Origin: Amycolatopsis thermoflava N1165
GTDB lineage: Bacteria; Actinomycetota; Actinomycetes; Mycobacteriales; Pseudonocardiaceae
Assembly (NCBI RefSeq): GCF_000473265.1
Contig: NZ_KI421511.1
Location: 2,283,731 to 2,347,730, forward strand
Reading direction: 5' to 3'
DNA length: 64,000 nucleotides
Below are positions 14,206-27,910 of this stretch, in pieces. Positions within the stretch are counted from its first letter, which is position 1. Each line of letters begins with the position of its first letter. Both the position numbers and the translations under genes were made by a program. The notes under the pieces were generated by a model. The model saw only the letters and a list, made by a program, of their open reading frames with translations. It made no database searches and was not told where the DNA came from.

Positions 14206-14583
14206 ATGAAGGTGATGCAGTCCCGCGGCAGCCCCCAGCCCGGCCCCGGCGCTCCCTTCGCCGTCACGGTGCAGGAGCGGGAGGCCGCCGTCGTCGTGCA
14301 CACCTCCGGCGAGCTCGACGCCTCCACCGTGCCGCGGCTGCGGGCGATCATGCGTGGCGTCCTGAGCGGCGCGCCCGCGGTGCTGGTCGTCGACCTGACC
14401 GGCGTGACCTTCCTCGGCTCGGCGGGGATGCACCTGCTGCTGGAGATCCAGAACCTCGCCGGGGACACCGAAGTGCGCGTCGTCGCGGACGCGCACAGCA
14501 CCGTCAAACCGTTGCGCCTCACCAGGCTCGTCGACGTGCTCGACCTCTACCCCACCCTCGCGCAGGCGCTGCGCCAGGCGTGA
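14206..14583 (+). CDS. STAS-domain anti-sigma factor antagonist
   Basis: This 125-residue protein is essentially one STAS domain: GELDASTVPRLRAIMRG, VVDLTGVTFLGSAGMHLLLE and a C-terminal DVLDLYPTLAQALRQ helix. The serine in FLGSAGM is the position phosphorylated in SpoIIAA/RsbV-type antagonists, which free a sigma factor by binding a kinase anti-sigma factor. No kinase or sigma gene is adjacent here; a related STAS gene at 24949 lies next to a degenerate HATPase. It ends three bases from the convergent CorA gene. Confidence 0.88.
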   Translation: MKVMQSRGSPQPGPGAPFAVTVQEREAAVVVHTSGELDASTVPRLRAIMRGVLSGAPAVLVVDLTGVTFLGSAGMHLLLEIQNLAGDTEVRVVADAHSTVKPLRLTRLVDVLDLYPTLAQALRQA

Positions 14584-15619: not shown

Positions 15620-16621
15620 GTGGAACCACTTCGCATCGGCATCCTGGGCGCGGCCCGCATCGCCGGGACCGCCATCGCCGCGCCCGCCCGCGAGACCGGG
15701 CACCGGCTGGTCGCCGTCGCCGCGCGGGACCGCGGCCGCGCCGAGGCGTTCGCCGCCGAGCACGGGGTGGAACGGGTTGCCGACGGCTACGCCGAGCTGC
15801 TGGCCGACGACGAGATCGACGTGGTGTACAACCCGCTGCCGAACGGGCTGCACGGGCCGTGGAACCTCGCCGCGGTGCGCGCCGGGAAGCACGTGCTGAG
15901 CGAGAAACCGTTCGCCGCCAACGCCGAGGAGGCCCGCGAGGTGGCCGCCGCGGCGGAGGCGGCCGGGGTGCGGGTCATGGAGGCCTTCCACTACCTCTAC
16001 CACCCGGTCCTGCTGCGGCTGCACGAAATCCTGGACTCCGGCGAGCTGGGCGAGCTGCGCGCCGCCGAGGCCGAACTGCTCATCCCCGCGCCCGCGGACA
16101 GCGATCCCCGGTGGTCGTTCGAGCTGGCGGGCGGGGCGCTGATGGACGTGGGCTGCTACGGGTTGCACGCGCTGCGTGGTCTCGCGCCGTGGGCGGGCGG
16201 CGCGCCGGTGCTGGAGTCGGCGACCGGGACGGCGCGGCGGCCCGGGGTGGATCAGGCGGTCGACGCGCGGCTGGCGTTCCCCGGCGGCGCGACCGGGGTG
16301 GTGCGGTGCGACATGGCCGCCGCGGAGGTCGGCTTCCGCCTGCGGCTGACCGGCACGCGCGGCGAGGCGACCGCGGTGAACTTCGTGCGCCCGGACACCG
16401 ACGACCGGGTCCTGATCGGCGACCGGGTCGAGCACCTCGGCCGCCGCCCGTCGTACTCCTACCAGCTGGAGGCCTTCGCGGCGCACGTCCGCGACGGCGC
16501 GCCGCTGCGCAACGACCTCGCCGACGCGGTCGCGACGATGGCGTTGATCGACGAGTGCTACCGCGCCGCCGGCTTCCCGGTGCGTCCCCGCTCACGTGTG
16601 GATCCGGTGACGGGCGCCTGA
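15620..16621 (+). CDS. Gfo/Idh/MocA-family NAD(P)-dependent oxidoreductase
   Basis: This 333-residue protein has the N-terminal Rossmann motif RIGILGAARIAGT, the conserved EKPFAANAEEA lysine-proline motif and the GGALMDVGCYGLHAL segment with the family's catalytic-region residues. Members oxidise or reduce sugar and inositol derivatives; the substrate is not predictable here. The GTG at 15620 has GGGGG about ten bases upstream and is preferred over a longer frame that would begin in the promoter. A GNAT gene follows 16 bases later but appears to have its own leaderless start. Confidence 0.9.
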   Translation: MEPLRIGILGAARIAGTAIAAPARETGHRLVAVAARDRGRAEAFAAEHGVERVADGYAELLADDEIDVVYNPLPNGLHGPWNLAAVRAGKHVLSEKPFAANAEEAREVAAAAEAAGVRVMEAFHYLYHPVLLRLHEILDSGELGELRAAEAELLIPAPADSDPRWSFELAGGALMDVGCYGLHALRGLAPWAGGAPVLESATGTARRPGVDQAVDARLAFPGGATGVVRCDMAAAEVGFRLRLTGTRGEATAVNFVRPDTDDRVLIGDRVEHLGRRPSYSYQLEAFAAHVRDGAPLRNDLADAVATMALIDECYRAAGFPVRPRSRVDPVTGA

Positions 16622-16637
16622 CCGGTAACGTCGGGTC

Positions 16638-17315
16638 GTGAGTTCTGTTCTGGACAACCCGGCCTTCGCGTCGCTGACCGGTCCGCACGCCCGGTTCGCC
16701 GAGTCGCACGGGACCGCCGTGCGGTACGACCCGGAGGTCTCGCCGTGGGCGGGCATGCCGGACGATGCGGACGAAACGGCGTGGAAGGACCTGGCGGAGC
16801 TGGCCGGGCCGGGCGGGGTGCTGGCGCTGCCGGGGCCGCCGCTGCCGCCGCCCGCGGACTGGGCCGTGGAGTTCGGCGTGCCGGGCGTGCAGATGGTCGC
16901 CGAATCGGCAGACACGGCACCGGATCCGGAGGCGGTGCGGCTGACCGCGGCCGACGTGCCCGAGATGCTCGCGCTGGCCGAGCGGACCCGGCCGGGCCCG
17001 TTCCTGCCGCGCACCGTCGAACTGGGCACCTACCTCGGGTTCCGCCACGAGGGGCGGCTGGTCGCGATGGCCGGGGAGCGCATGCACCCGCCCGGGTACA
17101 CCGAGATCAGCGCGGTCTGCACGGACGCGGAGTTCCGCGGGCAGGGGCTGGGCACGCGGCTGGTGCTCGCGGTGGCGCACGGGATCCGCGAGCGCGGCGA
17201 AACGCCGTTCCTGCACGCGGCGGCGGACAACACCAGCGCCATCCGCCTCTACACCGCACTGGGTTTCCGGCTGCGCCGCGAGATCGACTTCGTCGGGGTG
17301 CGGGTGCCCGCCTGA
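16638..17315 (+). CDS. GNAT-family N-acetyltransferase
   Basis: The 225-residue protein has a divergent N-terminal half and a clear GNAT domain in the C-terminal half: TEISAVCTDAEFRGQGLGTR with the acetyl-CoA-binding R-x-x-G-x-G/A pattern, then HAAADNTSAIRLYTALGF. The substrate is unknown. The GTG lies six bases after TAACGT (16626-16631), suggesting a leaderless transcript. It ends two bases from the convergent metallophore operon. Confidence 0.88.
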   Translation: MSSVLDNPAFASLTGPHARFAESHGTAVRYDPEVSPWAGMPDDADETAWKDLAELAGPGGVLALPGPPLPPPADWAVEFGVPGVQMVAESADTAPDPEAVRLTAADVPEMLALAERTRPGPFLPRTVELGTYLGFRHEGRLVAMAGERMHPPGYTEISAVCTDAEFRGQGLGTRLVLAVAHGIRERGETPFLHAAADNTSAIRLYTALGFRLRREIDFVGVRVPA

Positions 17316-17317
17316 TC

Positions 17318-18301
17318 TCAGGGCGCCGGCCACGGCATCCGGGACCACGGCAAGGCCAGGCCCGCGCGGGTCGCCGGCTCGACGGGCGCCAGGGACGTCA
17401 CCGGGACCGCTTCGCCGTGGCGCGCGAACACCGTGTCCACGTACCGGTGCCCGGTGTCCGCGGCGATGAACAGCACGGTGCGGTCGGACCGGTCCCGTTC
17501 CCAGCGCGCGGCGAGGTAGGCGGCTCCGGTGGACAGCCCGGCGAAGATCGCGTGCCTGCGCAGCAGGTCGACGCTGCCGGACAGCGCCGCGCCGAACCCG
17601 ACCCAGTGGACCGTGTCGTACAGCTCGTGCGCGACGTTGCCGAACGGGATGGAGCTGCCGATCCCGGCGATGATGATGTCCGGATCGGCGACGTGCTCGC
17701 TGCCGAAGGTGACGCTGCCGAACGGCTGCACCCCGACCAGCCCGACCCCGGGCGCGGTGGACCGCAGCCACGTCGCGAGCGCCCCGGTGGAGGCGCCCGA
17801 TCCGACGCCGCCCACCACGATCAGCCGGGACGGGTCCAGCTCCCGCGTGATCTGCCGGGCCACCGCCCGGTACCCGAGGTAGTGGACGCGGTCGTGGTAC
17901 TGCCGCATCCAGTGCCAGTCCGGGTGCGCGCGCAGGATCTCCCCGATCCGCCGCACCCGCCGGTTCTGGTCGAGCTTGAGGTCGGCCTCCGGCGGCATCT
18001 GCTCGAGCGTCGCGCCCAGCACCGCCAGCTGTGTGCGCAGCGTGTGGTCCACTGTGGTCGAACCGACGATGTGGCAGCGCAGGCCGAACCGGTGGCACGC
18101 CAGCGCGAGCGCGTAGGCGTAGATCCCGCTGGAGCTGTCCACCAGGGTGTCGCCGGGGGCGATCACGCCGGTGCGCAGCAGGTGCCGCACGGCCTCCAGC
18201 GCGGAGACCACCTTCATCGTCTCAAACCGCAGGCAGACCAGCCGGTCGCCGGTCCGGACCAGGTCCGGCCGCGCGATCGCCTCCGCGATGTGGTCGTGCA
18301 T
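17318..18301 (-). CDS. SbnA/cysteine-synthase-like PLP enzyme (fold type II)
   Basis: This 327-residue protein follows the cysteine-synthase plan but diverges at key loops. The PLP lysine is probably K30 in LRFETMKVVSALEAV; the substrate loop reads SSSGIYAYALALA where CysK has SGNTG; the phosphate-binding loop is GGVGSGASTGAL; a GLSTGAAYLAA segment matches the late GISSGAA motif. SbnA enzymes replace the phosphate of O-phosphoserine with an amine in metallophore synthesis, which would suit the kinase encoded just upstream. It is the last gene of the operon behind the Zur/Fur-type operator. The ATG at 18301 has GGAAGGG before it and lies 80 bases inside the kinase gene. Beta-replacement chemistry is inferred. 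Confidence 0.8.
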   Translation of the reverse strand: MHDHIAEAIARPDLVRTGDRLVCLRFETMKVVSALEAVRHLLRTGVIAPGDTLVDSSSGIYAYALALACHRFGLRCHIVGSTTVDHTLRTQLAVLGATLEQMPPEADLKLDQNRRVRRIGEILRAHPDWHWMRQYHDRVHYLGYRAVARQITRELDPSRLIVVGGVGSGASTGALATWLRSTAPGVGLVGVQPFGSVTFGSEHVADPDIIIAGIGSSIPFGNVAHELYDTVHWVGFGAALSGSVDLLRRHAIFAGLSTGAAYLAARWERDRSDRTVLFIAADTGHRYVDTVFARHGEAVPVTSLAPVEPATRAGLALPWSRMPWPAP

Positions 18302-19157
18302 CCGTCCCTTCCGTGGTGAACAGGCGGGTCGCGGGCAGTCCGGCGGCCCGCAGCGCGCGGACGCACCGGCGCACGCGATCGGGGTCGCCGCCGAGGTCGA
18401 ACAGCAGGCCGGCCACGTTGCCGCTGTGCGCGACCTGCACGCCGGCCGCGCCGGTGACGGCCGCGATCCGTTCCAGTTCCGGCAGTTCGTCCTTGGCGAG
18501 CACGCGCTGGTTCAGCCGGGCGCTTTCGGTGCTCACGCGGCCGAGCAGCGCGACGTCACCGGTCACGATCGCCAGCCGCAGCATCCGCCGCAGCCGCTCG
18601 AAGGCGGCCACGTCGGCGACGGCGCCCAGCGCGAGCGTGTCCACCGGCGCCCCGCCGCCGGTCACGCACCCGATCACGACGACGGGCGGGAGCCGCGGGC
18701 CGAGCCGTTCCAGCACCCGGCCTTCCCGCTGCGCGAAGAGCACCGCGCCGCCGCCGAGCATGATGGGGTCGCAGGCGCGCTCGGCCCGCACCGCGATCCG
18801 CGCTACGGCCTCCGGCGCGAGCACCACGCCGAACGCGGCCGACACGGCGTGCACGGTCGCCAGGATGTCGCTGGTGGACGATCCCAGCCCGAGCCCGACC
18901 GGCAGACCGCTGTCCAGCCGGAGCGATCCGCCCGCCGGGCGGCCGCACGCGGCGGCGGCCAGTTCGGCGGCGCGCCGCGCCTTCGCGCGGTCCGGCGGGG
19001 TCACCGTCAGCGGACCCGGCCCCGGCACGAACTCGGCACGCGTCGCCGCGCCGGGCACCGGCAGCGTGACCAGCCCGCGGCACCGGCGGCCGCGGTCGCG
19101 GAAGACGCCCTGCAGGATCTCGCCGTGGTGCCCTGGCGCGTGCCCCACACCGGTCAC
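18222..19157 (-). CDS. GHMP kinase, PduX-like (small-molecule kinase)
   Basis: This 311-residue protein begins with HAPGHHGEILQG, the PduX-type substrate loop, and has the GHMP ATP loop GLPVGLGLGSSTSDILA near residue 90. PduX phosphorylates L-threonine for cobalamin synthesis; here no cobalamin gene is present, and an amino-acid hydroxyl such as serine is a reasonable alternative substrate. The GTG at 19157 overlaps the upstream stop (GTGA). Its last 80 bases overlap the next gene, an unusually long overlap for this operon; residues beyond about 285 are unlike the family and may be an addition. Role and substrate are inference. Confidence 0.82.
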   Translation of the reverse strand: MTGVGHAPGHHGEILQGVFRDRGRRCRGLVTLPVPGAATRAEFVPGPGPLTVTPPDRAKARRAAELAAAACGRPAGGSLRLDSGLPVGLGLGSSTSDILATVHAVSAAFGVVLAPEAVARIAVRAERACDPIMLGGGAVLFAQREGRVLERLGPRLPPVVVIGCVTGGGAPVDTLALGAVADVAAFERLRRMLRLAIVTGDVALLGRVSTESARLNQRVLAKDELPELERIAAVTGAAGVQVAHSGNVAGLLFDLGGDPDRVRRCVRALRAAGLPATRLFTTEGTDARPHRGGDRAAGPGPDRRPAGLPAV

Positions 19158-19957
19158 GCCGCCGCCCGGTACCGGTACAGCGCGGTGGGCGCCGCGCTGA
19201 ACTGCGAGAACGGGAACGGCTCCGCGGACAGCGCGGTGACCCCGTCGCCGAGGAACGCGCGGGCCACCGCGCTGCCGGTCTGCGCGTAGACGACCAGCGG
19301 CACGGACCGCTCCCGGCACCGGCGGACGATCTCGTCGAAGGTCCCGTTGCCCAGAGTCATCCCGGTCGCCACGACCGCGTCCGCCACGCCGAGCACCTCC
19401 CCCATCTCCGGCGTCACCGGATCGCCCCACTGGGTGCGGCGCAGGTTGAGGTCGCACGGCAGGCAGGTCCCGCCACGGTCGCGGATCGCCGCGACGAGCG
19501 GGTTCACCACGCCGATGAGGGCGACCCGCGCGCCCGGGGCGATTTCCAGCAGCCCGGCGATCGCCGCGTCCCTGGCGTGTGCCCGGGCCTCGGGGGTGCC
19601 GGCGGGCAGGACGACCGGCTCCGCCGCGGGCTGCGCCTCGTGCGGCGCGGCCGCCGACAGGTAGGCGTCCAGCGCGGCGATCCGCAGCGGCACGGAGTCC
19701 TGACGCAGCAACTCCTCCAGCGGCGCCCCGGAGAACTCGGCACACACCTCCGGCGTCAGCTGCCCGGTCTCGAAGGCGCACGCGCCGAACGCGGCGCCCA
19801 GCCGCACCAGGACGTAGGAGTTGCGGTAGGTCACGTCCCCGCCGGCCAGCCGGGTGCCGTGGTGCAGCCAGAAGACGCTGGTGGCGGTCAGCTCCGCCGG
19901 ATCCGGGCCGTGCTTCCCGGCGAGGACTTCGGCGGTCAGGTCGGCGACGGTGGTCAC
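19154..19957 (-). CDS. DUF364 Rossmann-like protein (putative metal-chelation family)
   Basis: This 267-residue protein has the DUF364 pattern in its C-terminal half: VALIGVVNPLVAAIRDRGGT, a cysteine in TCLPCDLNL, and VADAVVATGMTLGNGTFDEI, followed by LVVYAQTGSAVARAFLGDG. The N-terminal half resembles the associated DUF4213-type domain. The family is annotated as putative heavy-metal chelation on structural grounds; no reaction is established. Start and stop overlap the flanking genes by four bases each (GTGA), so it is tightly coupled to the methyltransferase and kinase genes. It could act as a scaffold, a ligase-like enzyme or a metal-loading factor; I cannot choose. Confidence 0.8.
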   Translation of the reverse strand: MTTVADLTAEVLAGKHGPDPAELTATSVFWLHHGTRLAGGDVTYRNSYVLVRLGAAFGACAFETGQLTPEVCAEFSGAPLEELLRQDSVPLRIAALDAYLSAAAPHEAQPAAEPVVLPAGTPEARAHARDAAIAGLLEIAPGARVALIGVVNPLVAAIRDRGGTCLPCDLNLRRTQWGDPVTPEMGEVLGVADAVVATGMTLGNGTFDEIVRRCRERSVPLVVYAQTGSAVARAFLGDGVTALSAEPFPFSQFSAAPTALYRYRAAA

Positions 19958-20676
19958 GCCGCCTCCAGCCGGAACAGGTAGGTGAGCACGCCGTCGCCCC
20001 AGTCGTGGCGGTGGGCCACGTCGGCGGCGAACCCGTGCCCGGCGGCGTCCCGCACGATCGTGCGCAGGTCCGCGGTGTTGGACACGATGAGGAACACCTC
20101 GCCGCCGGGCGCGAGCAGGTTCCGTCCGGCCAGCTGCGCGAAGAACCGCTCCAGCAGCGGGGCGCCCACGCACACGTTGCGCACGACGTCCGGGTCGTCG
20201 CTCACCATCTGGCTCACCGCGGGCGGATTGAAGGTGATCACGTCCAGCCGCACGCCGTCCGGGAACCCGTCGAAGAGGTCGGCGACCACCGGCACGAACC
20301 GGGTGCCCGGCCGGGCGCCCACGATGCGTTCGTAGTGCCGCCGCGTGGTTTCGACGCTGTCCGGGTGCACGTCGATCGCGTGGATCTCGCGTGCCCCGCG
20401 CAGCCCGGCGGCGACGGCTTCGACGCCGAGCCCGCTGCCCATCGCGGCGTAGACGCGGTCGCGCACCTCGATGGTCCCGTCCAGGACCCGTTCGTGAATC
20501 ATCCGGCTGGTCGCGCCGGGCAGGAACACACCCGGCGGCGCGGTGAACTCCCATCCGCGCCAGGTGTAGGGGCGGGTGGTGCGCAGGTCGCCCTTCGGCT
20601 GGTTGAGCGCGATGATCCGGTCGGCGGGCAGGGGCGGCGGGAGCCGGTCGATCAGGGCGTTGTCCACAGTGTCCAT
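19954..20676 (-). CDS. Class I SAM-dependent methyltransferase (HemK-like, NPP motif)
   Basis: This 240-residue protein has the SAM-binding sequence VYAAMGSGLGVEAVAAGL, an acidic loop IHAIDVHPDS, and the motif DVITFNPPAVSQ. NPP(Y/F/A) motifs mark enzymes that methylate planar or amine nitrogens (HemK, RsmC, DNA amino methylases); this one is fused to no other domain. Inside a metabolite operon it more likely modifies a small molecule than a protein. The gene starts 11 bases after the binding-protein gene and overlaps the DUF364 gene by four bases. Confidence 0.85.
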   Translation of the reverse strand: MDTVDNALIDRLPPPLPADRIIALNQPKGDLRTTRPYTWRGWEFTAPPGVFLPGATSRMIHERVLDGTIEVRDRVYAAMGSGLGVEAVAAGLRGAREIHAIDVHPDSVETTRRHYERIVGARPGTRFVPVVADLFDGFPDGVRLDVITFNPPAVSQMVSDDPDVVRNVCVGAPLLERFFAQLAGRNLLAPGGEVFLIVSNTADLRTIVRDAAGHGFAADVAHRHDWGDGVLTYLFRLEAA

Positions 20677-20687
20677 TCCGGTCTCCG

Positions 20688-21674
20688 TCAGCGTCCGAGC
20701 GATCGCAGGTAGCCGGCCAGTTTCTCGGCGGCGTCGAGGTTGCGCGGGCCGCTGACGGCCTCGCCGTAGTCCAGCACGTGGAAGCGGTTCTCCCGCACCG
20801 CGGGGCTGTCCGCGAGCGGTGGGAAGGACTTCAGGAACGCGATCTTGTCGGCGACCGGCCGGTCGCCGTAGTCGACGACGGCGATCACCTCGGGCTGGGC
20901 CCGCACGACCGGTTCCCAGCCGATCGTGGTCCAGCGGGCGTCCAGGTTGCCGGCGATGTTGCGGCCGCCCGCCAGCGACACGATGGTGTCCGGCGCGGCC
21001 TGGTTGCCGGAGGTGAACGGCTGATCGGTGCCGGAGTCGTAGACGAACACCCGCGCGGGCTCCCCCGCCGGCGCGTTCGCCCGCAGCGCCGCGGCGCGGG
21101 CCTGCAGGTCCGCGACGAGCGCTTCGGCCCGGTCGGGGACGTGGAAGATCTGCCCGATCTGCCGCAGGTCGGTGTAGAGCGCCTCCAGCGGCGGCACCTT
21201 GACCGGCCGGTCGCCGTAGTTGAAGCAGCTCTCGGTGTGCTGGTAGCTGCGGATGCCCACACCGTCCAGTTTGGCCGGTGTGATGCCGCGAGCCTCGCTG
21301 AAGCCGGAGTTCCAGCCCGCCAGAACCCAGTCGGCCTGCGCGCCGACGACGGTTTCGAAGCTGAGCACGTCGGTGCTCAGCGTCTCCACCGAGCGGTAGT
21401 CGGCGACGTACGGCGAGCGCGCCACGGCGGGTTCGGCCGTGCGCGGCATGACGATGCCGCGCACCCGGCCGGCCAGCCCGAGCGCGAACATCTTCTCGGT
21501 GCTGCTCATGTCGTAGGCGACCGCGCGCCGCGGCAGCGGGTAGGTGATCGCGTGCCCGCAGTTCTCGACGGTCACCGGCGTCGGGCCGGTGTCACCGCCG
21601 GGCCGCACCTCGGCGCCGCACGCGGTGAGACCCAGCGCGACTGTCACGAGCACGGCTGTCCAACGCCCTCTCAC
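20688..21674 (-). CDS. Metal-complex ABC transporter substrate-binding lipoprotein (FepB/BtuF type)
   Basis: This 328-residue protein has a lipoprotein signal ending LGLTAC and the two-lobed pattern of cluster A-II binding proteins (ITYPLPRRAVAYDMSSTEKM near the start, FETVVGAQADWVLAGW in the middle). Such proteins bind metal-chelate complexes: ferric siderophores, cobalamin or zincophores. The GTG at 21674 overlaps the ATPase stop (GTGA). Operon position between the importer and the enzyme genes argues that the ligand is the product made by this cluster. Confidence 0.9.
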   Translation of the reverse strand: MRGRWTAVLVTVALGLTACGAEVRPGGDTGPTPVTVENCGHAITYPLPRRAVAYDMSSTEKMFALGLAGRVRGIVMPRTAEPAVARSPYVADYRSVETLSTDVLSFETVVGAQADWVLAGWNSGFSEARGITPAKLDGVGIRSYQHTESCFNYGDRPVKVPPLEALYTDLRQIGQIFHVPDRAEALVADLQARAAALRANAPAGEPARVFVYDSGTDQPFTSGNQAAPDTIVSLAGGRNIAGNLDARWTTIGWEPVVRAQPEVIAVVDYGDRPVADKIAFLKSFPPLADSPAVRENRFHVLDYGEAVSGPRNLDAAEKLAGYLRSLGR

Positions 21675-22453
21675 GGGCTTCCTCCTCGATCGGTGAACGT
21701 CCAGAGCAGTTGCGGGGCCCCGGTGACCGGGTGGGTCACCACGACCGGGGTCACGCCGAAGACCCGGCGCACGAGGTCCGGGGTGAGCACCTCGCCGGGC
21801 GGGCCCGCGGCCGCGAGCCGCCCGTCGTGCAGCACCGCCACGCGGTCGCAGGTGGCTGCGGCGAGGTTGAGGTCGTGCAGGGCGACCAGCACGGTCAGCC
21901 CGCAGGAACGCAGGAACGACAGCAGTTCGACCTGGTGCCGCACGTCGAGGTGGTTGGTCGGCTCGTCGAGGACGAGGATCCGCGGCTCCTGCGCGAGGGC
22001 GCGGGCGATGAGCACGCGCTGCCGTTCGCCGCCGGACAGCGACAGGATGCCGCGCCCGGCCAGGTGCGCGACGCCGGTCCGCTCCAGGCAGCGATGGACG
22101 AGGTCGCGTTCGCGCTCGCTCAGCGCCCGGTTGCCGGGGTGGTGCGGGAACCGGCCCATCGCGACCACGTCGGCGACGGTGAAGTCCAGATCGGCGCCCG
22201 CCTCCTGGGTGACCGCGGCGACCAGCCGGGCGCTGTCCCGGTTGGACAGTCCACTCAGGTCGGTCCCGCCGGCGAGGACGGCCCCGGCGCTGGGGGTCAG
22301 CGCCCGGTAGACGCAGCGCAGCGCCGTGGACTTGCCGCTGCCGTTCGGGCCGACCAGCCCGACCACCTCGCCGTCGCCCACCTTGAGGCTGAGCGCGTCG
22401 ACCAGCTTGCGTCCGGCGGCCTCGACGGTGACCGCATCGAGGGCGAGGTCCAT
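21671..22453 (-). CDS. FecE/BtuD-type ABC transporter ATP-binding protein
   Basis: This 260-residue ATPase has Walker A GPNGSGKST, signature LSLSGGERQRVLIAR, Walker B RILVLDEPTNHLD and a switch histidine in VALHDLNLAA. This is the subtype that drives siderophore and cobalamin importers. The ATG overlaps the permease stop (ATGA), and its own stop overlaps the binding-protein start. Confidence 0.95.
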   Translation of the reverse strand: MDLALDAVTVEAAGRKLVDALSLKVGDGEVVGLVGPNGSGKSTALRCVYRALTPSAGAVLAGGTDLSGLSNRDSARLVAAVTQEAGADLDFTVADVVAMGRFPHHPGNRALSERERDLVHRCLERTGVAHLAGRGILSLSGGERQRVLIARALAQEPRILVLDEPTNHLDVRHQVELLSFLRSCGLTVLVALHDLNLAAATCDRVAVLHDGRLAAAGPPGEVLTPDLVRRVFGVTPVVVTHPVTGAPQLLWTFTDRGGSP

Positions 22454-23520
22454 CAGCGGCCCCCGAACAGGTAGCCGCGGCCGCGCAGCAGGCCGACGAA
22501 CACCGGCACCCCGATCAGCGCGGTGATCACCCCGAGCGGCAGCTCGCGCGGCGCGAACAGGGTGCGGGAGGCGAGGTCGACCCAGATCAGGAAGATCGCC
22601 CCGGCCGGCGGCGCGAGCACGAGCACCCGCCGGTGCCCCGGTCCGGCCACCATCCGCACCAGGTGCGGCAGGACCAGGCCGACGAAGCCGACCGCGCCGC
22701 TGACCGCGACCAGCGCGCCGGTCACGACGGCGGTGAGCAGGAACAGCTCCCGCCGCAGGGCGTCGGCGTCGAGCCCGAGGCTCGCGGCGGACTCGTCGCC
22801 CAGCGTCAGCACGTCGAGCGCCCGGCTGCGCCGCAGCAGCACCACCACGGCCACCGCGACCGCGGCCACCGCGACCGGCAACGCGCCCCAGGTGGCGCCC
22901 CCGAGGCTGCCGAGCAGCCAGAACAGCACCGAGCGGGCGGCCTCGCCGAACGGCGCGAAGAACACGATCACGCTCATCACCGCCTGGAACCCGTAGGCGA
23001 GCGCGACACCGGTGAGCACGAGCCGCAGCGGGGTGAGCCCGGCGCGGCCGCGGGCGGCCACGTACACCAGGACCGACGCGGCGAGCGCGCCGAGGAACGC
23101 GGCCGCCGACAACGCGTACACGCCGAGCGCCCCGAACAACCCGAAGGACACCACCGCGCTGGCGCCGACCGACGCGCCCGAGGAAACGCCCAGCACGAAC
23201 GGATCGGCGAGCGCGTTGCGGACCATCGCCTGCACCGCGACCCCGATCACGGACAGCCCGGCCCCGACGACGGCGGCCAGCAGCACGCGCGGCGTGCGCA
23301 CCTGCCACACGATCGAGTAGCCGGTGACCTCGTCCGCGCCGATCTCGCCCCCGGTCAGCGCCGCCGCGAGGTACCGCAGCGTGTCCGGCAGCGGCACCAC
23401 GGTCGGTCCGAACGCGACTCCGGCCACGACGGACACCACCAGCACGGCGACGAGCACGGGCACCGCGAGCGCACCCGTCACGGCTCGGGCCGGTGGCGAA
23501 CCGGTCACGGTCACCGTCAC
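22453..23520 (-). CDS. FecCD-type metal-chelate ABC transporter permease
   Basis: This 355-residue membrane protein has the FecCD/BtuC fold, with about ten helices and signatures such as FVLGVSSGASVGASAVV and GFVGLVLPHLVRMVAGPGHR. Only one permease gene is present, so it should act as a homodimer. I start at the GTG at 23520, which has GGGGG six bases upstream; the longer open frame runs through the operator and promoter. It is the first gene of the seven-gene operon, 82 bases downstream of the Zur/Fur-type palindrome. Confidence 0.93.
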   Translation of the reverse strand: MTVTVTGSPPARAVTGALAVPVLVAVLVVSVVAGVAFGPTVVPLPDTLRYLAAALTGGEIGADEVTGYSIVWQVRTPRVLLAAVVGAGLSVIGVAVQAMVRNALADPFVLGVSSGASVGASAVVSFGLFGALGVYALSAAAFLGALAASVLVYVAARGRAGLTPLRLVLTGVALAYGFQAVMSVIVFFAPFGEAARSVLFWLLGSLGGATWGALPVAVAAVAVAVVVLLRRSRALDVLTLGDESAASLGLDADALRRELFLLTAVVTGALVAVSGAVGFVGLVLPHLVRMVAGPGHRRVLVLAPPAGAIFLIWVDLASRTLFAPRELPLGVITALIGVPVFVGLLRGRGYLFGGR

Positions 23521-23601
23521 GAGTACCCCCTTGTCGTTACCACTGGCGAAGGACGGAGGCCCGGCCAGCTGACTCTCCGTGAACCGGACCCGATAGTACA
23601 A

Positions 23602-23618
23602 ACGATAATCATTTTCGT
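23602..23618. promoter_or_regulatory. Zur/Fur-family operator in the divergent metallophore promoter
   Basis: ACGATAATCATTTTCGT is a 17-bp imperfect palindrome (ACGA-AAT arms, one mismatched pair) with the GAnAATnATTnTC core typical of actinobacterial Zur boxes and close to a Fur box. It stands out as the most AT-rich stretch of the region and lies midway between the divergent starts at 23520 and 23670, so one repressor could control both. It does not resemble the TTAGGTTAGG-type IdeR/DmdR iron box. Confidence 0.72.
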
Positions 23619-23669
23619 CTAGAGTCCGATGCCGGACATCCACCGCGACCGAGGAGGAACTCCCCCGCC

Positions 23670-24872
23670 GTGACCACTCCCGTCCTGCGTGACCCCGCGT
23701 TCCTGCGCCTGTGGTGCGGCACCACGGCCTCCGGGCTGGCGACCTGGGCGCTGCCGTTCGTCCTCGGCCTGGCCGTCCTGGACTCCTCGCTCACCCCGGC
23801 CGGACTGGGCGTGCTCCTCGCCGCGCGCACGATCGGGTTCCTCGCGGCCGTGCCGGTCGGCGGTGTACTGGCGGACCGGTTCCCGCGACGCCGGGTGGTC
23901 GCCGTCGCCGGAGCGGCGGCGGCCGTGGCGAGCCCGGTCATCGGGGCCGGGCTGCACGGTTCCCTCGCCGTGGCCGTCGTGGCGGCCGCCGTCGCGGGAG
24001 CCGGGCAGGGCGCGTGCCGCCCGGCCTTCCAGGCGCTCACCGCCGAAGTGGTCGCCGAGGCCGGGCGGCAGCGCGCCAACGCCGCGATCACACTGTCGGT
24101 GCGCGTGACCACCCTGGTCGCACCGAGCCTGACCGCGCTGCTGGCGACGGTGCTGCCCGTTCCGGCCCTGCTGTGGGGCACCGGGCTGCTGTGGCTGGCC
24201 GCGGCGCTCGTCCCGCCCGCCGGGCGCCCGCTCACGGCCCTGCCCGCGGCCCGCGCGTCGTTCGCCGCCGAGTTCGCCGACGGGCTCCGCGAAGCCCGCC
24301 GCCACCCCTGGTTCGTCGCCGGGCTGTTCGCGCTCACCGCGGTGATCGCGACCGGCTACTCGGCCACCGGGGTCGCGCTGCCGTTGGTCAGCCGTGACCG
24401 GTACGGCTCGGAAGCCGTGCTCGCCGCCGCCACGACCGCCTACACGGTCGGCGCGCTGGCCGGCGCGCTGCTGCTCGCGCGGTGGACGCCCCGGGCGGCG
24501 GGCCGGACGGCGCTGGCGGGACTGGCCGCCTACGCCGTCGCCCCGCTGAGCCTGCTGCTGCCCGTGCACCCGGCGGTGGTCGTCGCCGCGTACGCGGTCG
24601 CCGGCGTGGGCATCGAACTGTTCAACGTCCCGTGGTTCACCGCGATCCAGCGCGAGGTCGAGCCCGGCAAGCTCGCCCGGGTGTCCGCTTTGGACTTCCT
24701 GCTGTCCTACGGACTGGCGCCGGCCGGGCTCGCGCTCATCGCGCCCGCGATGGCGGAATTCGGCGCCGGACCGGTGCTCGGCGCGTGCGCGCTGGTGTGC
24801 CTGCTCGCGCCCGCGGCGGCCGCGCTGGCGCCCGGGACGCGACATTTCGCCCAGCCGCGTGACCGTCTCTGA
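23670..24872 (+). CDS. MFS efflux transporter, likely metallophore exporter
   Basis: This 400-residue protein has about twelve hydrophobic segments and the MFS loop motif in GGVLADRFPRRRVV between helices 2 and 3. It resembles the EntS/enterobactin-exporter group that secretes siderophores. The GTG at 23670 follows GAGGAGGAA. It is divergent from the importer/biosynthesis operon and shares the Zur/Fur-type operator, which fits a make-export-reimport cycle. The substrate assignment rests on context only. Confidence 0.88.
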   Translation: MTTPVLRDPAFLRLWCGTTASGLATWALPFVLGLAVLDSSLTPAGLGVLLAARTIGFLAAVPVGGVLADRFPRRRVVAVAGAAAAVASPVIGAGLHGSLAVAVVAAAVAGAGQGACRPAFQALTAEVVAEAGRQRANAAITLSVRVTTLVAPSLTALLATVLPVPALLWGTGLLWLAAALVPPAGRPLTALPAARASFAAEFADGLREARRHPWFVAGLFALTAVIATGYSATGVALPLVSRDRYGSEAVLAAATTAYTVGALAGALLLARWTPRAAGRTALAGLAAYAVAPLSLLLPVHPAVVVAAYAVAGVGIELFNVPWFTAIQREVEPGKLARVSALDFLLSYGLAPAGLALIAPAMAEFGAGPVLGACALVCLLAPAAAALAPGTRHFAQPRDRL

Positions 24873-24948
24873 ACTGGTGCTCGTCGTGCGGGCGTGATTA
24901 CCCTACGAGAAGAAGCCAGGCCAGACAGGGCTGACGGGGAGGAGAGTC

Positions 24949-25362
24949 ATGAGCCACCCGGCGCGCAACTCCACCGGTGCCGTGAGCACGGCCGTTCGCA
25001 GCGGGGCCCGTGTCCCCGCGCAACGGGCCGCGCCCGGAGCCCTGCGGCTGCAGGTGTTCTGGCCCCTGCCGGGGATCGCCGTGCTGAAGGTCGCCGGCGA
25101 CATCGACGTGGCCACCGCCGCCCCGCTCGACCGCGCGCTGGACGAACTGACCGCGCACCGGCCGCGCGTCGTGGTGGTCGACCTCGGCGGGGTGGACTTC
25201 CTCGGCTCCGCCGGCCTGGCCGCGCTCGCCCAGGCGAGTGAACACGCCGATATCCGCGTGGTGGCCCCGACGCGGCAGACCGCCCGGCCGCTGGCGATCA
25301 CCGGTCTGGACCAGCGGCTGCCGGTCTACACCACTCGCGACGAGGCGCTCACCGGCTGCTGA
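24949..25362 (+). CDS. STAS-domain anti-sigma factor antagonist
   Basis: This 137-residue protein has a short basic N-terminus then a STAS domain: LKVAGDIDVATAAPLDRALDE, VVVDLGGVDFLGSAGLAALA with the phospho-acceptor serine in FLGSAGL. It is a paralogue of the STAS gene at 14206. A GGGGAGGAGAG ribosome site precedes the ATG, and a TACCCT -10 box lies at 24899-24904. Its 3' end overlaps the convergent HATPase-like gene by 14 bases, so the two are probably a partner pair read from opposite strands. Confidence 0.9.
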   Translation: MSHPARNSTGAVSTAVRSGARVPAQRAAPGALRLQVFWPLPGIAVLKVAGDIDVATAAPLDRALDELTAHRPRVVVVDLGGVDFLGSAGLAALAQASEHADIRVVAPTRQTARPLAITGLDQRLPVYTTRDEALTGC

Positions 25363-25735
25363 ACCGCGTGCGGGCGCGCAGTTCGCGCTCGGCCCACAGC
25401 ACTCCGCGCGGCCCGGTGCCCCACCGGGTGCTGATCGCGTCGAGCACCCCGGTGCCGATGCCCGGCTCCGGCGCCCCGCCCACACCGTCGACCTCCACCC
25501 GCAGCACGTCCCCGGCGCGGCTCAGCCGGACCTCGAACGGTGGGAACCCGGTGGCGCACGCCGACGCGGCCAGCTCGTCGACGAGGAGCACCACGTCGAT
25601 CACGACCGGCGACAGGCAGTCCGCGAGCATCGCGCGCACTCGCCTGCGCAGCGGCGCCAGCCCCTCCGGGCCGTCGAGGCGCACCGCCGTGACCGGCGTG
25701 CGCTCGTCCAGTGAGTCGGTCAAGGACCCGGACAC
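25349..25735 (-). CDS. Degenerate HATPase-like anti-sigma protein (RsbW-like)
   Basis: The 128-residue protein has the layout of small actinobacterial anti-sigma HATPases (PLRRRVRAMLADCLSPVVID, then LLVDELAASACATG, then LRVEVDGVGG). The N-box that should read ExxxNA has serine where asparagine binds magnesium, and the later G-box (DxGxG) is weak, so ATP binding is doubtful. It may be a non-catalytic binding partner. Convergent overlap with the STAS gene supports a regulatory link. The start at 25735 (GTG) is uncertain; the gene could begin a few codons later. Confidence 0.65.
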   Translation of the reverse strand: MSGSLTDSLDERTPVTAVRLDGPEGLAPLRRRVRAMLADCLSPVVIDVVLLVDELAASACATGFPPFEVRLSRAGDVLRVEVDGVGGAPEPGIGTGVLDAISTRWGTGPRGVLWAERELRARTRFSSR

Positions 25736-25888
25736 CTCCGCTGTCTCGTCAACGGCCGCCGTCGCTACCCACGCGCGGATTCATCAAACCTTGGACGAAT
25801 GAAATCACGCGGCAGGGCCGCGCGCACCACACGGACGGGCGCACTCGGCCACCCGGTCGGCGGATCGGGGCTCTACGAACGGTGGGTG

Positions 25889-27910
25889 TCAGGCCGGCGC
25901 GGGCGGCTCCGGGTCGGGCGGTCCGAGGGCGTCGTCGATGGCCTGTTCCACGATCGTGTCCATGGTGCCGAGGTAGGTCGCGCCGACATGGTTGTCGTCG
26001 AGGTAGACCAGCACGTTGCCGATCACCGGCGGGCAGACGGCCTCGTCGCAGTAGTAGTCGCTGAAGTCCAGGAACGACACGTTCGGGGGAACGTCGTCCA
26101 GGAACAGCCAGGGCGGCTCGTCGGCGTAGAAGTCGGCGCGCGGCGGGTTGCACTCGGGGGCGTCCGCGCCGCGCAGCTCCACGCACTCCGACGGCGCGTA
26201 GTCGTAGCGCGGGTTGTCCCGCACCGCGAGCACCGGGATCCCGGCGGCCTCGATCTTCCGCCACTGCGCGACGAACCCGGGCGGCGTCCACTCGGTCAGG
26301 CCGGCCCGCACGTCCCGGGTGGCGGTGGTGAACACGGCGTCCGGCCGCAGGTCCAGGATCTCGTCGGCGGCCGCGGCGTTCCACTCCCGGCAGGCCTGGT
26401 CGTCCGGGTCGATCTCGGACTCGGTGGAGAACGGGCACCCGCCCCGCGACATCACCACCAGCTGCCAGTTCCGCCGCTGCGCCACCGGCTCCAGCGCCGC
26501 GATGAACTGGGTGGGGTGCGAGTCACCGACGATGACCAGGGTCTTCTCCGGCGGGCCGTCCGGCGTCGTGGCACACACCAGCAGTTCGCTGCCGCGCGGC
26601 GATTCGGTGCAGTCGTCGATCCAGGCCCAGTCGCCGGGCAGCTCGACCGGCGACGGCACCGGCGCGACGTCGGCGGCGCCGCGGTAGACGAACCCGGGCG
26701 TGCGGGCCAGCGCGCCGGGGTGGTCCAGGCCACCGGCGGCGGGCGTCCCGGACCGGGCGAGCCCGGCGATCTGCCAGGCGCCCGCGGCGGCCAGCACGGG
26801 GATCATCGCCAGCACGGCGAACCGGTAGGCGCCGCGGACGGCCAGCTGCGACCGGCGCACCGGCGTCTCGACCAGGTGGTGGGTCGCCACCGCGAGCGCG
26901 AGCGACAGAGCGATGACGAACGCGCCGCCGAGCAGGCCGACCTCGGTCCGCCCGCGGTACACCAGGTAGAGCACCAGCACCGGCCAGTGCCACAGGTAGA
27001 GCGGGAAGCTGAGCCTGCCGAGCCAGGTCAGCGGGCGGGCCGTCAGCAGCCGGTCCGCGCCGGCGGGGCTGCCGGTGGCGCCGGCGAGCAGCACGAACGC
27101 CGCCGAGGCGACCGGCCACAGCGCGGCGAAGCCCGGGAACACGGTGCCGACCTGCAGCACGAGCCCGCAGGCGACGAGCCCGGCGACACCGAGCCAGCCG
27201 AGCGCGATCCGCAGCGCGCGGGGCAGCGTGACCGCGTCGATGACCAGCGCGAGCAGCCCGCCGAGCGCGAACTCCCAGATCCTGGTGAGCGCGGAGAAGT
27301 AGGCCAGCGGCTGGTTCGCCGCGGTCAGCCACACCGAGTACGCCAGCGACGCGGCGGTCAGGACCAGCAGCGTGCCGGTCAGGGCGGTGCGCAGGCGTCC
27401 CCGCGCGGCGTAGGCGAGCGCGGCCACCAGCAGCGGCCACATGAGGTAGAACTGGCCCTGGATGGACAGCGACCAGAAGTGCTGCACCACGCTGGCGTCG
27501 CTGTGCCGGGCGAAGTAGTCGGCCGAGTTCGCGGCGAGCTGCCAGTTCTCCAGGTACAGCGTGGCGGCGACGACCTCGCGGACGGTGGCGAACCAGCGGG
27601 CCTGCGGCAGCACCAGCGCGGCGGCGGCGATCACCACGAGCAGCACGGTGAGCGCGGCCGGGAACAGCCGCGTGATCGTGCGGCCCCACAGCGCGCGGAC
27701 GTCGATGCGGCCGCGCTGCCCGGCGCGGAACAGCTGGCCGGTGATCAGGAAGCCGGTCAGGAAGAAGAACACGTCGACGCCGCCGGAGATCCGGCCCAGC
27801 CACACGTGGTAGACGACCACGAGGACGCAGGCGAGCGCGCGCAGGCCTTCGATCTCGGGGCGATACCGCTTCTCGGGGACGGACCGGGTGCGCGGGTGGG
27901 GCGGGGTCAT
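25889..27910 (-). CDS. OafA/YrhL-type acyltransferase with C-terminal SGNH domain
   Basis: This 673-residue protein has an N-terminal acyltransferase-3 domain with about ten to eleven membrane helices (opening YRPEIEGLRALACVLVVVYH, catalytic histidine in VYHVW) and a C-terminal extracytoplasmic SGNH hydrolase domain with the serine block VGDSHPTQF and the late DDNHVGATYL block. Such fusions O-acetylate cell-surface polysaccharides or peptidoglycan. The ATG at 27910 follows GAGGAAAGG; a GTG two codons upstream is less likely. It stands alone. Confidence 0.93.
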   Translation of the reverse strand: MTPPHPRTRSVPEKRYRPEIEGLRALACVLVVVYHVWLGRISGGVDVFFFLTGFLITGQLFRAGQRGRIDVRALWGRTITRLFPAALTVLLVVIAAAALVLPQARWFATVREVVAATLYLENWQLAANSADYFARHSDASVVQHFWSLSIQGQFYLMWPLLVAALAYAARGRLRTALTGTLLVLTAASLAYSVWLTAANQPLAYFSALTRIWEFALGGLLALVIDAVTLPRALRIALGWLGVAGLVACGLVLQVGTVFPGFAALWPVASAAFVLLAGATGSPAGADRLLTARPLTWLGRLSFPLYLWHWPVLVLYLVYRGRTEVGLLGGAFVIALSLALAVATHHLVETPVRRSQLAVRGAYRFAVLAMIPVLAAAGAWQIAGLARSGTPAAGGLDHPGALARTPGFVYRGAADVAPVPSPVELPGDWAWIDDCTESPRGSELLVCATTPDGPPEKTLVIVGDSHPTQFIAALEPVAQRRNWQLVVMSRGGCPFSTESEIDPDDQACREWNAAAADEILDLRPDAVFTTATRDVRAGLTEWTPPGFVAQWRKIEAAGIPVLAVRDNPRYDYAPSECVELRGADAPECNPPRADFYADEPPWLFLDDVPPNVSFLDFSDYYCDEAVCPPVIGNVLVYLDDNHVGATYLGTMDTIVEQAIDDALGPPDPEPPAPA

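What the first reader, a model, noticed from the sequence alone, without database searches (positions are those of the whole stretch)
17318..24872. Candidate new metallophore pathway without NRPS or NIS synthetase
Seven overlapping minus-strand genes (FecCD permease, ATPase, binding lipoprotein, NPP-motif methyltransferase, DUF364 protein, PduX-like kinase, SbnA-like PLP enzyme) and a divergent MFS exporter share one Zur/Fur-type operator. Known zincophore routes (coelibactin NRPS; staphylopine; EDDS; EDHA) contain an NRPS, an opine dehydrogenase, a SbnB-like enzyme or an ATP-grasp ligase. None of those is present here. The set implies make, export and reimport of a small ligand assembled by a chemistry I do not recognise.
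Basis: partly seen in the sequence, partly recalled or inferred. Interest (0 to 1): 0.88.

Follow-up and report, generated by a model that had tools for sequence, protein, structure and literature searches.

The report
Zinc-controlled metal-scavenger cassette, DUF364 type
This is a compact set of eight bacterial genes with a zinc-sensor DNA site between them that probably makes, exports and takes back a small metal-catching molecule by a route without the usual assembly enzymes; the product itself has not been seen.

Summary
They behave as one block: four congeners with the same flanks lack it, apart from the last 31-53 bases of the MFS frame, and a fifth keeps only scraps. A match to the actinobacterial Zur box lies at 23603-23617. 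Of the 80 nearest DUF364 loci fetched, I counted the 65 with at least 19 kb: PLP enzyme in 65, MFS in 65, importer in 64 (62 FecCD, 2 Opp-type), kinase in 48, methyltransferase in 29. The Zur-box core is perfect in 24 of 65 (0.23 expected from shuffles) and within one mismatch in 54 (6.4 expected). Best reading: a Zur-controlled metallophore cassette, probably for zinc, with DUF364 plus an SbnA-like PLP enzyme as core and an aminopolycarboxylate as inferred product. No NRPS, NIS, opine-dehydrogenase, SbnB-type or ATP-grasp gene was found in the 19 genes scanned. Product, metal, transport direction and the DUF364 reaction are untested.

The parts
17318..18301 (-). SbnA-like fold-type-II PLP enzyme (327 aa); Lys29 aligns with the lysine of SMKDRPA in SbnA, taken to be the PLP lysine
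   Evidence: PF00291 111 bits; TIGR03945 134 bits, below its cut-off; Lys29 invariant in 26 of 26 aligned sequences; alignment to SbnA chains 5d84 and 5d87
18222..19157 (-). GHMP-family small-molecule kinase (311 aa), probably phosphorylates a beta-hydroxy amino acid (inferred)
   Evidence: PF00288 45.6 bits against cut-off 22.3; GE..QG and G.G..SS..D conserved in at least 97% of 55 sequences
19154..19957 (-). DUF364 (PF04016) protein, 267 aa; constant partner of the PLP enzyme, reaction unknown
   Evidence: PF04016 45.3 bits against cut-off 23; profile match to DUF364 structure 3npg at E 2.4e-4; with the PLP gene in 65 of 65 loci
19954..20676 (-). PrmC/HemK-like NPPA-motif methyltransferase (240 aa), optional tailoring enzyme
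   Evidence: MTS 22.6 bits, just under cut-off; NPPA conserved in 35 sequences; found in 29 of 65 loci
20688..21674 (-). substrate-binding lipoprotein of the FecCD-type importer
   Evidence: PF01497 71.8 bits
21671..22453 (-). importer ATPase
   Evidence: PF00005 105.6 bits
22453..23520 (-). FecCD-type importer permease; GTG start with AAGGGGG upstream
   Evidence: PF01032 273 bits; start context
23603..23617 (.). Zur box CGATAATCATTTTCG between the divergent FecCD and MFS genes
   Evidence: 2 mismatches of 11 defined positions to tGaNNatSatNNtCa, both outermost; core enriched in homologous clusters
23670..24872 (+). MFS protein, probably the exporter (direction inferred), divergent from the operon
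   Evidence: PF07690 126.8 bits; TIGR00900 119.8 bits, below cut-off; an MFS gene in 65 of 65 homologous loci

Best explanation
The cassette is a Zur-repressed make-export-reimport system for a small metallophore, most likely a zincophore. When zinc is low, Zur leaves the shared operator and both divergent transcripts are made. Inferred chemistry: the GHMP kinase phosphorylates the side-chain hydroxyl of an amino acid (serine or threonine). The SbnA-like PLP enzyme eliminates the phosphate and adds the amino group of a second amino acid, giving an N-substituted 2,3-diamino acid. DUF364 performs a further, unknown, constant step and the NPPA methyltransferase decorates the product. The MFS protein exports the ligand, and the lipoprotein, FecCD permease and ATPase take the metal complex back. 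Shown here: gene content, block inheritance, conserved co-occurrence, Zur-box enrichment. Inferred: every chemical step, the zinc specificity, the repression itself and the direction of transport.
For: DUF364 and the PLP enzyme co-occur in 65 of 65 loci, an MFS gene in 65 of 65, FecCD in 62 of 65 and Opp-type binding proteins in 2 more, counted anywhere in the locus. Importers are exchanged (two SBP groups on FecCD systems, or Opp-type) while the enzyme core stays, much as described for opine zincophores (PMC7438024, passages). The Zur core GANNATSATNNTC is perfect in 24 of 65 loci (30 shuffles: mean 0.23, maximum 2) and within one mismatch in 54 of 65 (mean 6.4, maximum 10). Perfect cores are 17.6 per 100 kb there and 1.0 elsewhere in the same loci. 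The same genome holds znuA, a possible Zur-like box before it and three Fur-family regulators. The cassette is absent as a block in four congeners with the same flanks and reduced to scraps in a fifth. GHMP-kinase plus PLP pairs lie beside ArgH-like and ATP-grasp genes in two loci and beside ATP-grasp in a third, which fits diamino-acid synthesis. SbnI generating the SbnA substrate is a precedent (PMC9598555, passages; that SbnI is a serine kinase is recalled). The DUF364 structure paper proposed from fold and context a role in chelator synthesis (PMC2954201, passages).
Against: No metabolite, expression or binding data exist. Eleven of 65 loci have no core within one mismatch, and about six of the 54 that do are expected by chance; positions relative to gene starts were not checked for every locus. 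Within one mismatch the enrichment over the rest of the loci is only twofold (49 against 24 per 100 kb). L016 has no convincing site, and four of seven cousin or variant loci checked upstream have only sites with two or three mismatches of 11. The znuA site of the same genome fits the 172-region consensus worse (4 of 11 mismatches) than the cluster box; by the 17-genome consensus both have 2 of 10. The kinase was not found in 17 of 65 clusters, and 12 of 16 such genomes searched have no homologue at E 0.001, so phosphorylation cannot be universal. One Mesorhizobium kinase plus PLP pair has neither ArgH-like nor ATP-grasp neighbours. Loci are related, so counts are not independent events. Transport direction and cargo cannot be read from sequence.
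Confidence: 0.68

Rival explanations
1. A member of the known aminopolycarboxylate metallophores (EDDS, EDHA or close kin): the same SbnA-type condensation with different accessory genes, so the product would be an EDDS-like compound already known.
For: SbnA-like enzyme, MFS exporter and Zur control are shared with [S,S]-EDDS as I recall it; finding the EDDS genes through Zur sites is cited in PMC12161575 (passages). The genus includes Amycolatopsis tucumanensis and A. thermalba, whose contigs have the lengths of contigs in same-genus genomes G002 and G005.
Against: No SbnB/ornithine-cyclodeaminase-like, ArgH-like or ATP-grasp gene among the 19 genes scanned. The constant DUF364 is not part of the EDDS or EDHA gene sets as I recall them. 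The PLP enzyme is below the SbnA equivalog cut-off.
Confidence: 0.1
2. Uptake and internal processing: the importer brings in a foreign metal chelate under zinc starvation and the enzymes modify or degrade it to release the metal; the MFS protein expels the spent ligand.
For: The gene order, import genes first, would also suit this; transport direction is not shown.
Against: SbnA-like enzymes with a kinase are known from anabolic beta-replacement, and such pairs sit beside an NRPS, ATP-grasp and ArgH-like genes in two other loci. The enzyme core stays while importers of different families are exchanged.
Confidence: 0.12
3. A metallophore system as in the best explanation, but whose real cargo is another metal (iron, nickel, cobalt, copper) or several metals. 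This overlaps the best explanation and differs in the metal.
For: FecCD importers commonly carry iron chelates or cobalamin (general knowledge); staphylopine binds several metals in vitro (PMC9598555, passages). A related PLP cluster without DUF364 lies near an FhuF_C-domain protein.
Against: The operator fits the Zur consensus; IdeR-type boxes (up to 4 mismatches) turned up in only 2 of 90 loci scanned.
Confidence: 0.2
4. A cobalamin or F420-precursor uptake and salvage operon: BtuCDF-like transporter with a PduX-like threonine kinase.
For: The best NCBIfam matches of the three importer proteins are the putative F420-0 ABC transporter models.
Against: Those matches are below the curated cut-offs (163 of 392, 283 of 372, 287 of 437 bits). 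No Rfam family reaches its gathering score in 16000-26000. The kinase was not found in 17 of 65 clusters. Zur boxes are not expected.
Confidence: 0.03

Closest known systems
Opine-type zincophores (staphylopine, pseudopaline, bacillopaline, yersinopine)
   Same: Small cluster with few enzymes, MFS (or EamA) exporter, FecCD- or Opp-type importer and zinc-linked control (PMC7438024 and PMC9598555, passages).
   Different: No nicotianamine-synthase-like or opine-dehydrogenase gene among the 19 genes scanned; core is DUF364 plus SbnA-like PLP enzyme.
[S,S]-EDDS and EDHA aminopolycarboxylate metallophores
   Same: SbnA-like enzyme, no NRPS, Zur control of EDDS (mostly recalled; the EDDS and EDHA papers were seen only as entries in reference lists).
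   Different: Accessory genes of those pathways (SbnB-like, lyase-like, ATP-grasp; recalled) were not found here; DUF364 and the GHMP kinase are extra.
SbnA/SbnI module of staphyloferrin B
   Same: A second protein generates the SbnA substrate (SbnI; PMC9598555, passages).
   Different: The kinase here is of the GHMP family, there is no SbnB and no NIS synthetase among the 19 genes scanned, and the substrate loop differs (SSGIY against TSGN).
Kinase + PLP + ArgH-like modules (Azospirillum oryzae plasmid, Streptomyces NBC_01707 NRPS cluster; pacidamycin-type diaminobutyrate pathway recalled)
   Same: GHMP kinase next to a PLP enzyme with the same FxxMK form as here.
   Different: ArgH-like lyase and ATP-grasp are absent; DUF364, MFS gene and importer are present. 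A product that keeps the donor amino acid is therefore expected (inference).
DUF364 family (PF04016; structures 3l5o and 3npg)
   Same: Above the family cut-off; the family's context was already noted as metal transport (PMC2954201, passages).
   Different: No demonstrated DUF364 reaction appeared in the listings I saw; this clade has its own set of invariant residues.

Membership tests
DUF364 (PF04016) | Score above the curated Pfam cut-off | tested here: met
   45.3 against 23 bits; profile match to 3npg, E 2.4e-4
SbnA equivalog (TIGR03945) | Score above the curated cut-off | tested here: not met
   134.1 against 349.95 bits
Fold-type-II PLP enzymes | Lysine aligned with that of SbnA | tested here: met
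   Lys29 aligns with K of SMKDRPA in SbnA; invariant in 26 of 26
Zur regulon (actinobacterial) | 7-1-7 Zur box in the promoter region | tested here: met
   2 of 11 mismatches in the window; core enriched across 65 loci
Zur regulon (actinobacterial) | Zinc- and Zur-dependent expression | not testable with these tools
   needs RNA or reporter assay
Opine zincophore | Opine (staphylopine-type) dehydrogenase in the cluster | tested here: not met
   None among the 19 genes scanned; a whole-genome search with PF10100 found none, but its control set did not ring, so a copy elsewhere is not excluded
NRPS or NIS metallophore | NRPS modules or IucA/IucC synthetase in the cluster | tested here: not met
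   No such Pfam match in the 19 genes scanned; the rest of the genome was not searched for them
EDDS/EDHA aminopolycarboxylates | SbnB-like/lyase-like enzymes (EDDS) or ATP-grasp ligase (EDHA); features recalled | tested here: not met
   None among the 19 genes scanned
Putative F420-0 ABC transporter (TIGR03868/03869/03873) | Scores above curated cut-offs | tested here: not met
   163 of 392, 287 of 437, 283 of 372 bits
PduX L-threonine kinase | Recognised by a specific family model or assay | tested here: inconclusive
   Only generic GHMP matches; the GE..QG motif resembles PduX by recall only
Metallophore biosynthesis | Cassette-dependent secreted metal-binding product | not testable with these tools
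   needs metabolomics

The most novel reading that the evidence does not exclude
DUF364 plus a divergent SbnA-like enzyme is the core of a widespread, so far undescribed class of Zur-controlled zincophores in Actinomycetota. DUF364 would be a new condensing or bond-forming enzyme standing where opine dehydrogenases, NRPSs or ATP-grasp ligases stand in known pathways. Around it, kinase, methyltransferase, 2OG oxygenases and at least three kinds of importer are exchanged to diversify the ligand and its private uptake.
Probability: 0.42. Interest if true: 0.85.

Novelty: new variant of a known kind. Interest (0 to 1): 0.7.

Why it matters
If right, a common soil-bacterial zinc-scavenging pathway may have been overlooked because it lacks the enzymes by which metallophore clusters are usually found. 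It would also give the DUF364 family, whose first structure came out in 2010 without a known reaction (PMC2954201), a direct test: an operon with two constant enzymes, a zinc-type operator and a secreted product to look for.

Tried and rejected
Rejected: a cobalamin or F420 salvage operon (no Rfam match; importer scores below cut-offs); control by IdeR; loss of the PLP lysine, which I first suspected from the altered motif and which the alignment to SbnA refuted. I also first thought the loop before that lysine was shortened; the alignment shows changed residues of equal length there, so that claim is dropped. Led nowhere: a simple sigma-70 promoter scan of 23400-23800, no site; a solved-structure search with the methyltransferase, no match; an annotated region that held no features. 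Paper searches gave nothing on this gene set by title and abstract start. DUF364 is named in seven papers of the held library; none of their titles or abstract starts points to this cluster and only PMC2954201 was opened (passages). Subscription papers and preprints are not held, so a description elsewhere is not excluded. Alignment A1 mixed wrong strands for three loci and was replaced by A2.
Full report
What is there. The window holds eight intact genes between 17318 and 24872. Seven run on the minus strand; five of their six junctions overlap and one has an 11-bp gap. The eighth, an MFS gene, diverges. Pfam and NCBIfam identify a fold-type-II PLP enzyme, a GHMP-family kinase, a DUF364 protein, an NPPA-motif methyltransferase (just below its Pfam cut-off), a Peripla_BP_2 lipoprotein, an ABC ATPase, a FecCD permease and an MFS protein. 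The PLP enzyme is similar to SbnA but far below the SbnA equivalog cut-off (134 against 350 bits). 'PduX-like' for the kinase could not be verified; the GE..QG motif conserved in 55 sequences resembles PduX only by my recall.

It is one block. In the genus, 9 of 19 genomes keep the GNAT gene (16638-17315) and the acyltransferase gene (25889-27910) close together on one contig. In four (the own genome, G002, G014, G005) they are about 8.6-8.9 kb apart, with the cassette between. In five they are 0.56-1.44 kb apart. In four of those (G001, G003, G010, G013) homology jumps from window 17308-17315 to 24820-24842, so that only the last 31-53 bases of the MFS frame are matched. In the fifth (G011) pieces matching 17874-18008 and 18041-18086 of the PLP gene remain before homology resumes at 24800, which looks like a deletion scar. 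The GNAT gene and the CorA and oxidoreductase genes to the left and the STAS and acyltransferase genes to the right lie outside it.

It is common and conserved. The DUF364 protein has relatives in 4 of 19 genomes of its genus, own genome included, and in 11 of 61 relatives overall, one of these weak. It matches in 7 of 396 genomes drawn evenly over the phylum, own included. I counted only the 65 of those 80 with at least 19 kb of DNA (presence anywhere in the locus, by bit-score thresholds). DUF364 (the query) and the PLP enzyme are in 65 of 65. An MFS gene is in 65 of 65 (54 of one kind, 11 of another). FecCD permease is in 62, an Opp-type binding protein in 2 others; L092 showed neither. The kinase is in 48, the methyltransferase in 29, both in 20, a TauD-type oxygenase in 20 and a PhyH-type oxygenase in 3 (families). 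Binding proteins fall into two groups. So the constant part is DUF364 plus PLP enzyme plus an MFS gene plus, nearly always, an importer; the rest is exchangeable. The 80 loci were chosen by DUF364 similarity, so they are near relatives, not a sample of all DUF364 genes.

Zinc control. The S. coelicolor Zur motif from 172 ChIP regions is tGaNNatSatNNtCa (PMC5472717, passages). The window site CGATAATCATTTTCG at 23603-23617 departs from it only at the two end positions. It is the only place within one mismatch of GAWAATSATTWTC in the genome, a pattern drawn from the site itself. In the 65 loci I scanned DNA not covered by a recognised cluster gene, with 500-bp flanks. It holds a perfect core GANNATSATNNTC in 24 loci and a core within one mismatch in 54; 30 dinucleotide-preserving shuffles gave means of 0.23 (maximum 2) and 6.4 (maximum 10). 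Perfect cores are 17.6 per 100 kb there against 1.0 in the rest of the same loci, coding DNA included; within one mismatch the difference is only twofold, 49 against 24. Twelve of 14 genera have at least one locus within one mismatch. Against: 11 of 65 have no such site, one variant locus (L016) has none convincing, positions relative to gene starts were not checked one by one, and the loci are related. The own genome has znuA with CGAAAACCGTTTCCA 46 bp before its likely start. By the 17-genome consensus quoted in the same paper this site and the cluster site fit equally (2 of 10 mismatches); by the 172-region one the znuA site is worse (4 of 11). Three Fur-family genes exist; which one is Zur I infer from a small ArsR-like gene before the first, as in M. 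tuberculosis by recall. IdeR-type boxes appeared in 2 of 90 loci, with 2 and 3 mismatches.

A sister architecture. Loci L019, L020, L021, L128 and L129, whose DUF364 proteins are about 39-44% identical to the window's, carry an ATP-grasp gene, DUF364, a PLP enzyme, a dipeptide-epimerase-type gene, MFS, a methyltransferase and an ABC importer. I checked the families by Pfam in L019 only, where the ligase is of the LAL type and the binding protein is SBP_bac_5; L020 and L021 follow by clustering (in L021 the epimerase was not called by my gene finder) and L128 and L129 by their annotation. Within 400 bp before the first gene the best Zur-like site has 1 mismatch of 11 in L020 and L128, 2 in L019 and L021 and 3 in L129; three-mismatch sites are frequent by chance, so L129 is no evidence. 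DUF364 thus stays with a PLP enzyme, an MFS gene and an importer even when the other enzymes change.

The chemistry, as far as it can be inferred. The lysine is kept (Lys29, invariant in 26 of 26; aligned with SMKDRPA of SbnA), but the residues before it read FETMK where the sister enzymes have AGGMK, and the substrate loop reads SSGIY where SbnA has TSGN. The FxxMK form also occurs in PLP enzymes that sit beside a GHMP kinase in an Azospirillum plasmid (kinase, PLP, ATP-grasp, ArgH-like), a Streptomyces NRPS cluster (kinase, PLP, ATP-grasp, ArgH-like, aldolase), a Streptomyces clavifer cluster (kinase, PLP, ATP-grasp, MFS, methyltransferase) and a Mesorhizobium plasmid (kinase, PLP, with neither ligase nor lyase beside them). 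Kinase, PLP and ArgH-like enzymes together are the recalled route to 2,3-diaminobutyrate in pacidamycin: phosphorylate threonine, replace the phosphate by aspartate, release fumarate. Without the lyase the added amino acid would stay, giving an aminopolycarboxylate. In staphyloferrin B, SbnI generates the substrate of SbnA (PMC9598555, passages; its kinase activity is recalled). The kinase cannot be universal: it was not found in 17 of 65 clusters, and of 16 of these 17 genomes searched, 12 had no homologue, 2 a weak one and 2 a clear one elsewhere, one of those with an internal stop. Those lineages may use a phosphorylated amino acid of primary metabolism; that is a guess. The DUF364 reaction is unknown. 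Its structure paper proposed condensation or hydrolysis in chelator synthesis from fold and context (PMC2954201, passages).

What is known and what is not. Opine zincophores are the closest functional parallel: few enzymes, MFS or EamA export, FecCD or Opp import (PMC7438024, passages). None of the defining enzymes of opine, NRPS, NIS or (as recalled) EDDS/EDHA metallophores was found in the 19 genes scanned, that is the eight cassette genes and eleven neighbours. A genome-wide search for opine dehydrogenase was negative, but its control did not ring. Ten paper searches showed no title or abstract start that describes this gene set; four of the listings were capped (20 of 350, 20 of 40, 25 of 229 and 15 of 157 papers shown), and I opened passages of eight papers, none as a whole. 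Subscription papers are not held, so prior publication cannot be excluded.

Verdict. I rate a Zur-controlled metallophore cassette at 0.68, with zinc the likeliest metal. The product, the metal, transport direction and the DUF364 reaction remain untested.

Noticed in passing
L019, L020, L021, L128 (8670-20667), L129 (8688-19887): A second DUF364 architecture with ATP-grasp gene, dipeptide-epimerase-type gene, methyltransferase and Opp-type or similar importer; Zur-like sites upstream are good in two, fair in two and no better than chance in L129.
   Followed up: partly
L123 (8962-14760), L124 (7953-9958), L126 (7950-12700): A GHMP kinase plus PLP-enzyme pair on Azospirillum and Mesorhizobium plasmids and in a Streptomyces NRPS cluster, in two of the three with ArgH-like and ATP-grasp genes.
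   Followed up: partly
L131 (4871-13245): GHMP kinase, PLP enzyme (63% identical), ATP-grasp, MFS and methyltransferase near an FhuF_C-domain protein and a ferric-reductase-like protein; no DUF364 annotated there and no Zur or IdeR box found.
   Followed up: partly
L138 (914-1100), matching window 17874-18086: A congener that lacks the cassette keeps scraps of the PLP gene, which suggests loss by deletion.
   Followed up: yes
window 14206-14583 and 24949-25362: Two separate STAS-domain genes lie either side of the region, the second directly after the cassette.
   Followed up: no
L127 (6176-12858): A version of the cassette, with a GHMP kinase and without a methyltransferase gene in the listed features, sits on a 121-kb plasmid of Tsukamurella tyrosinosolvens.
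   Followed up: no
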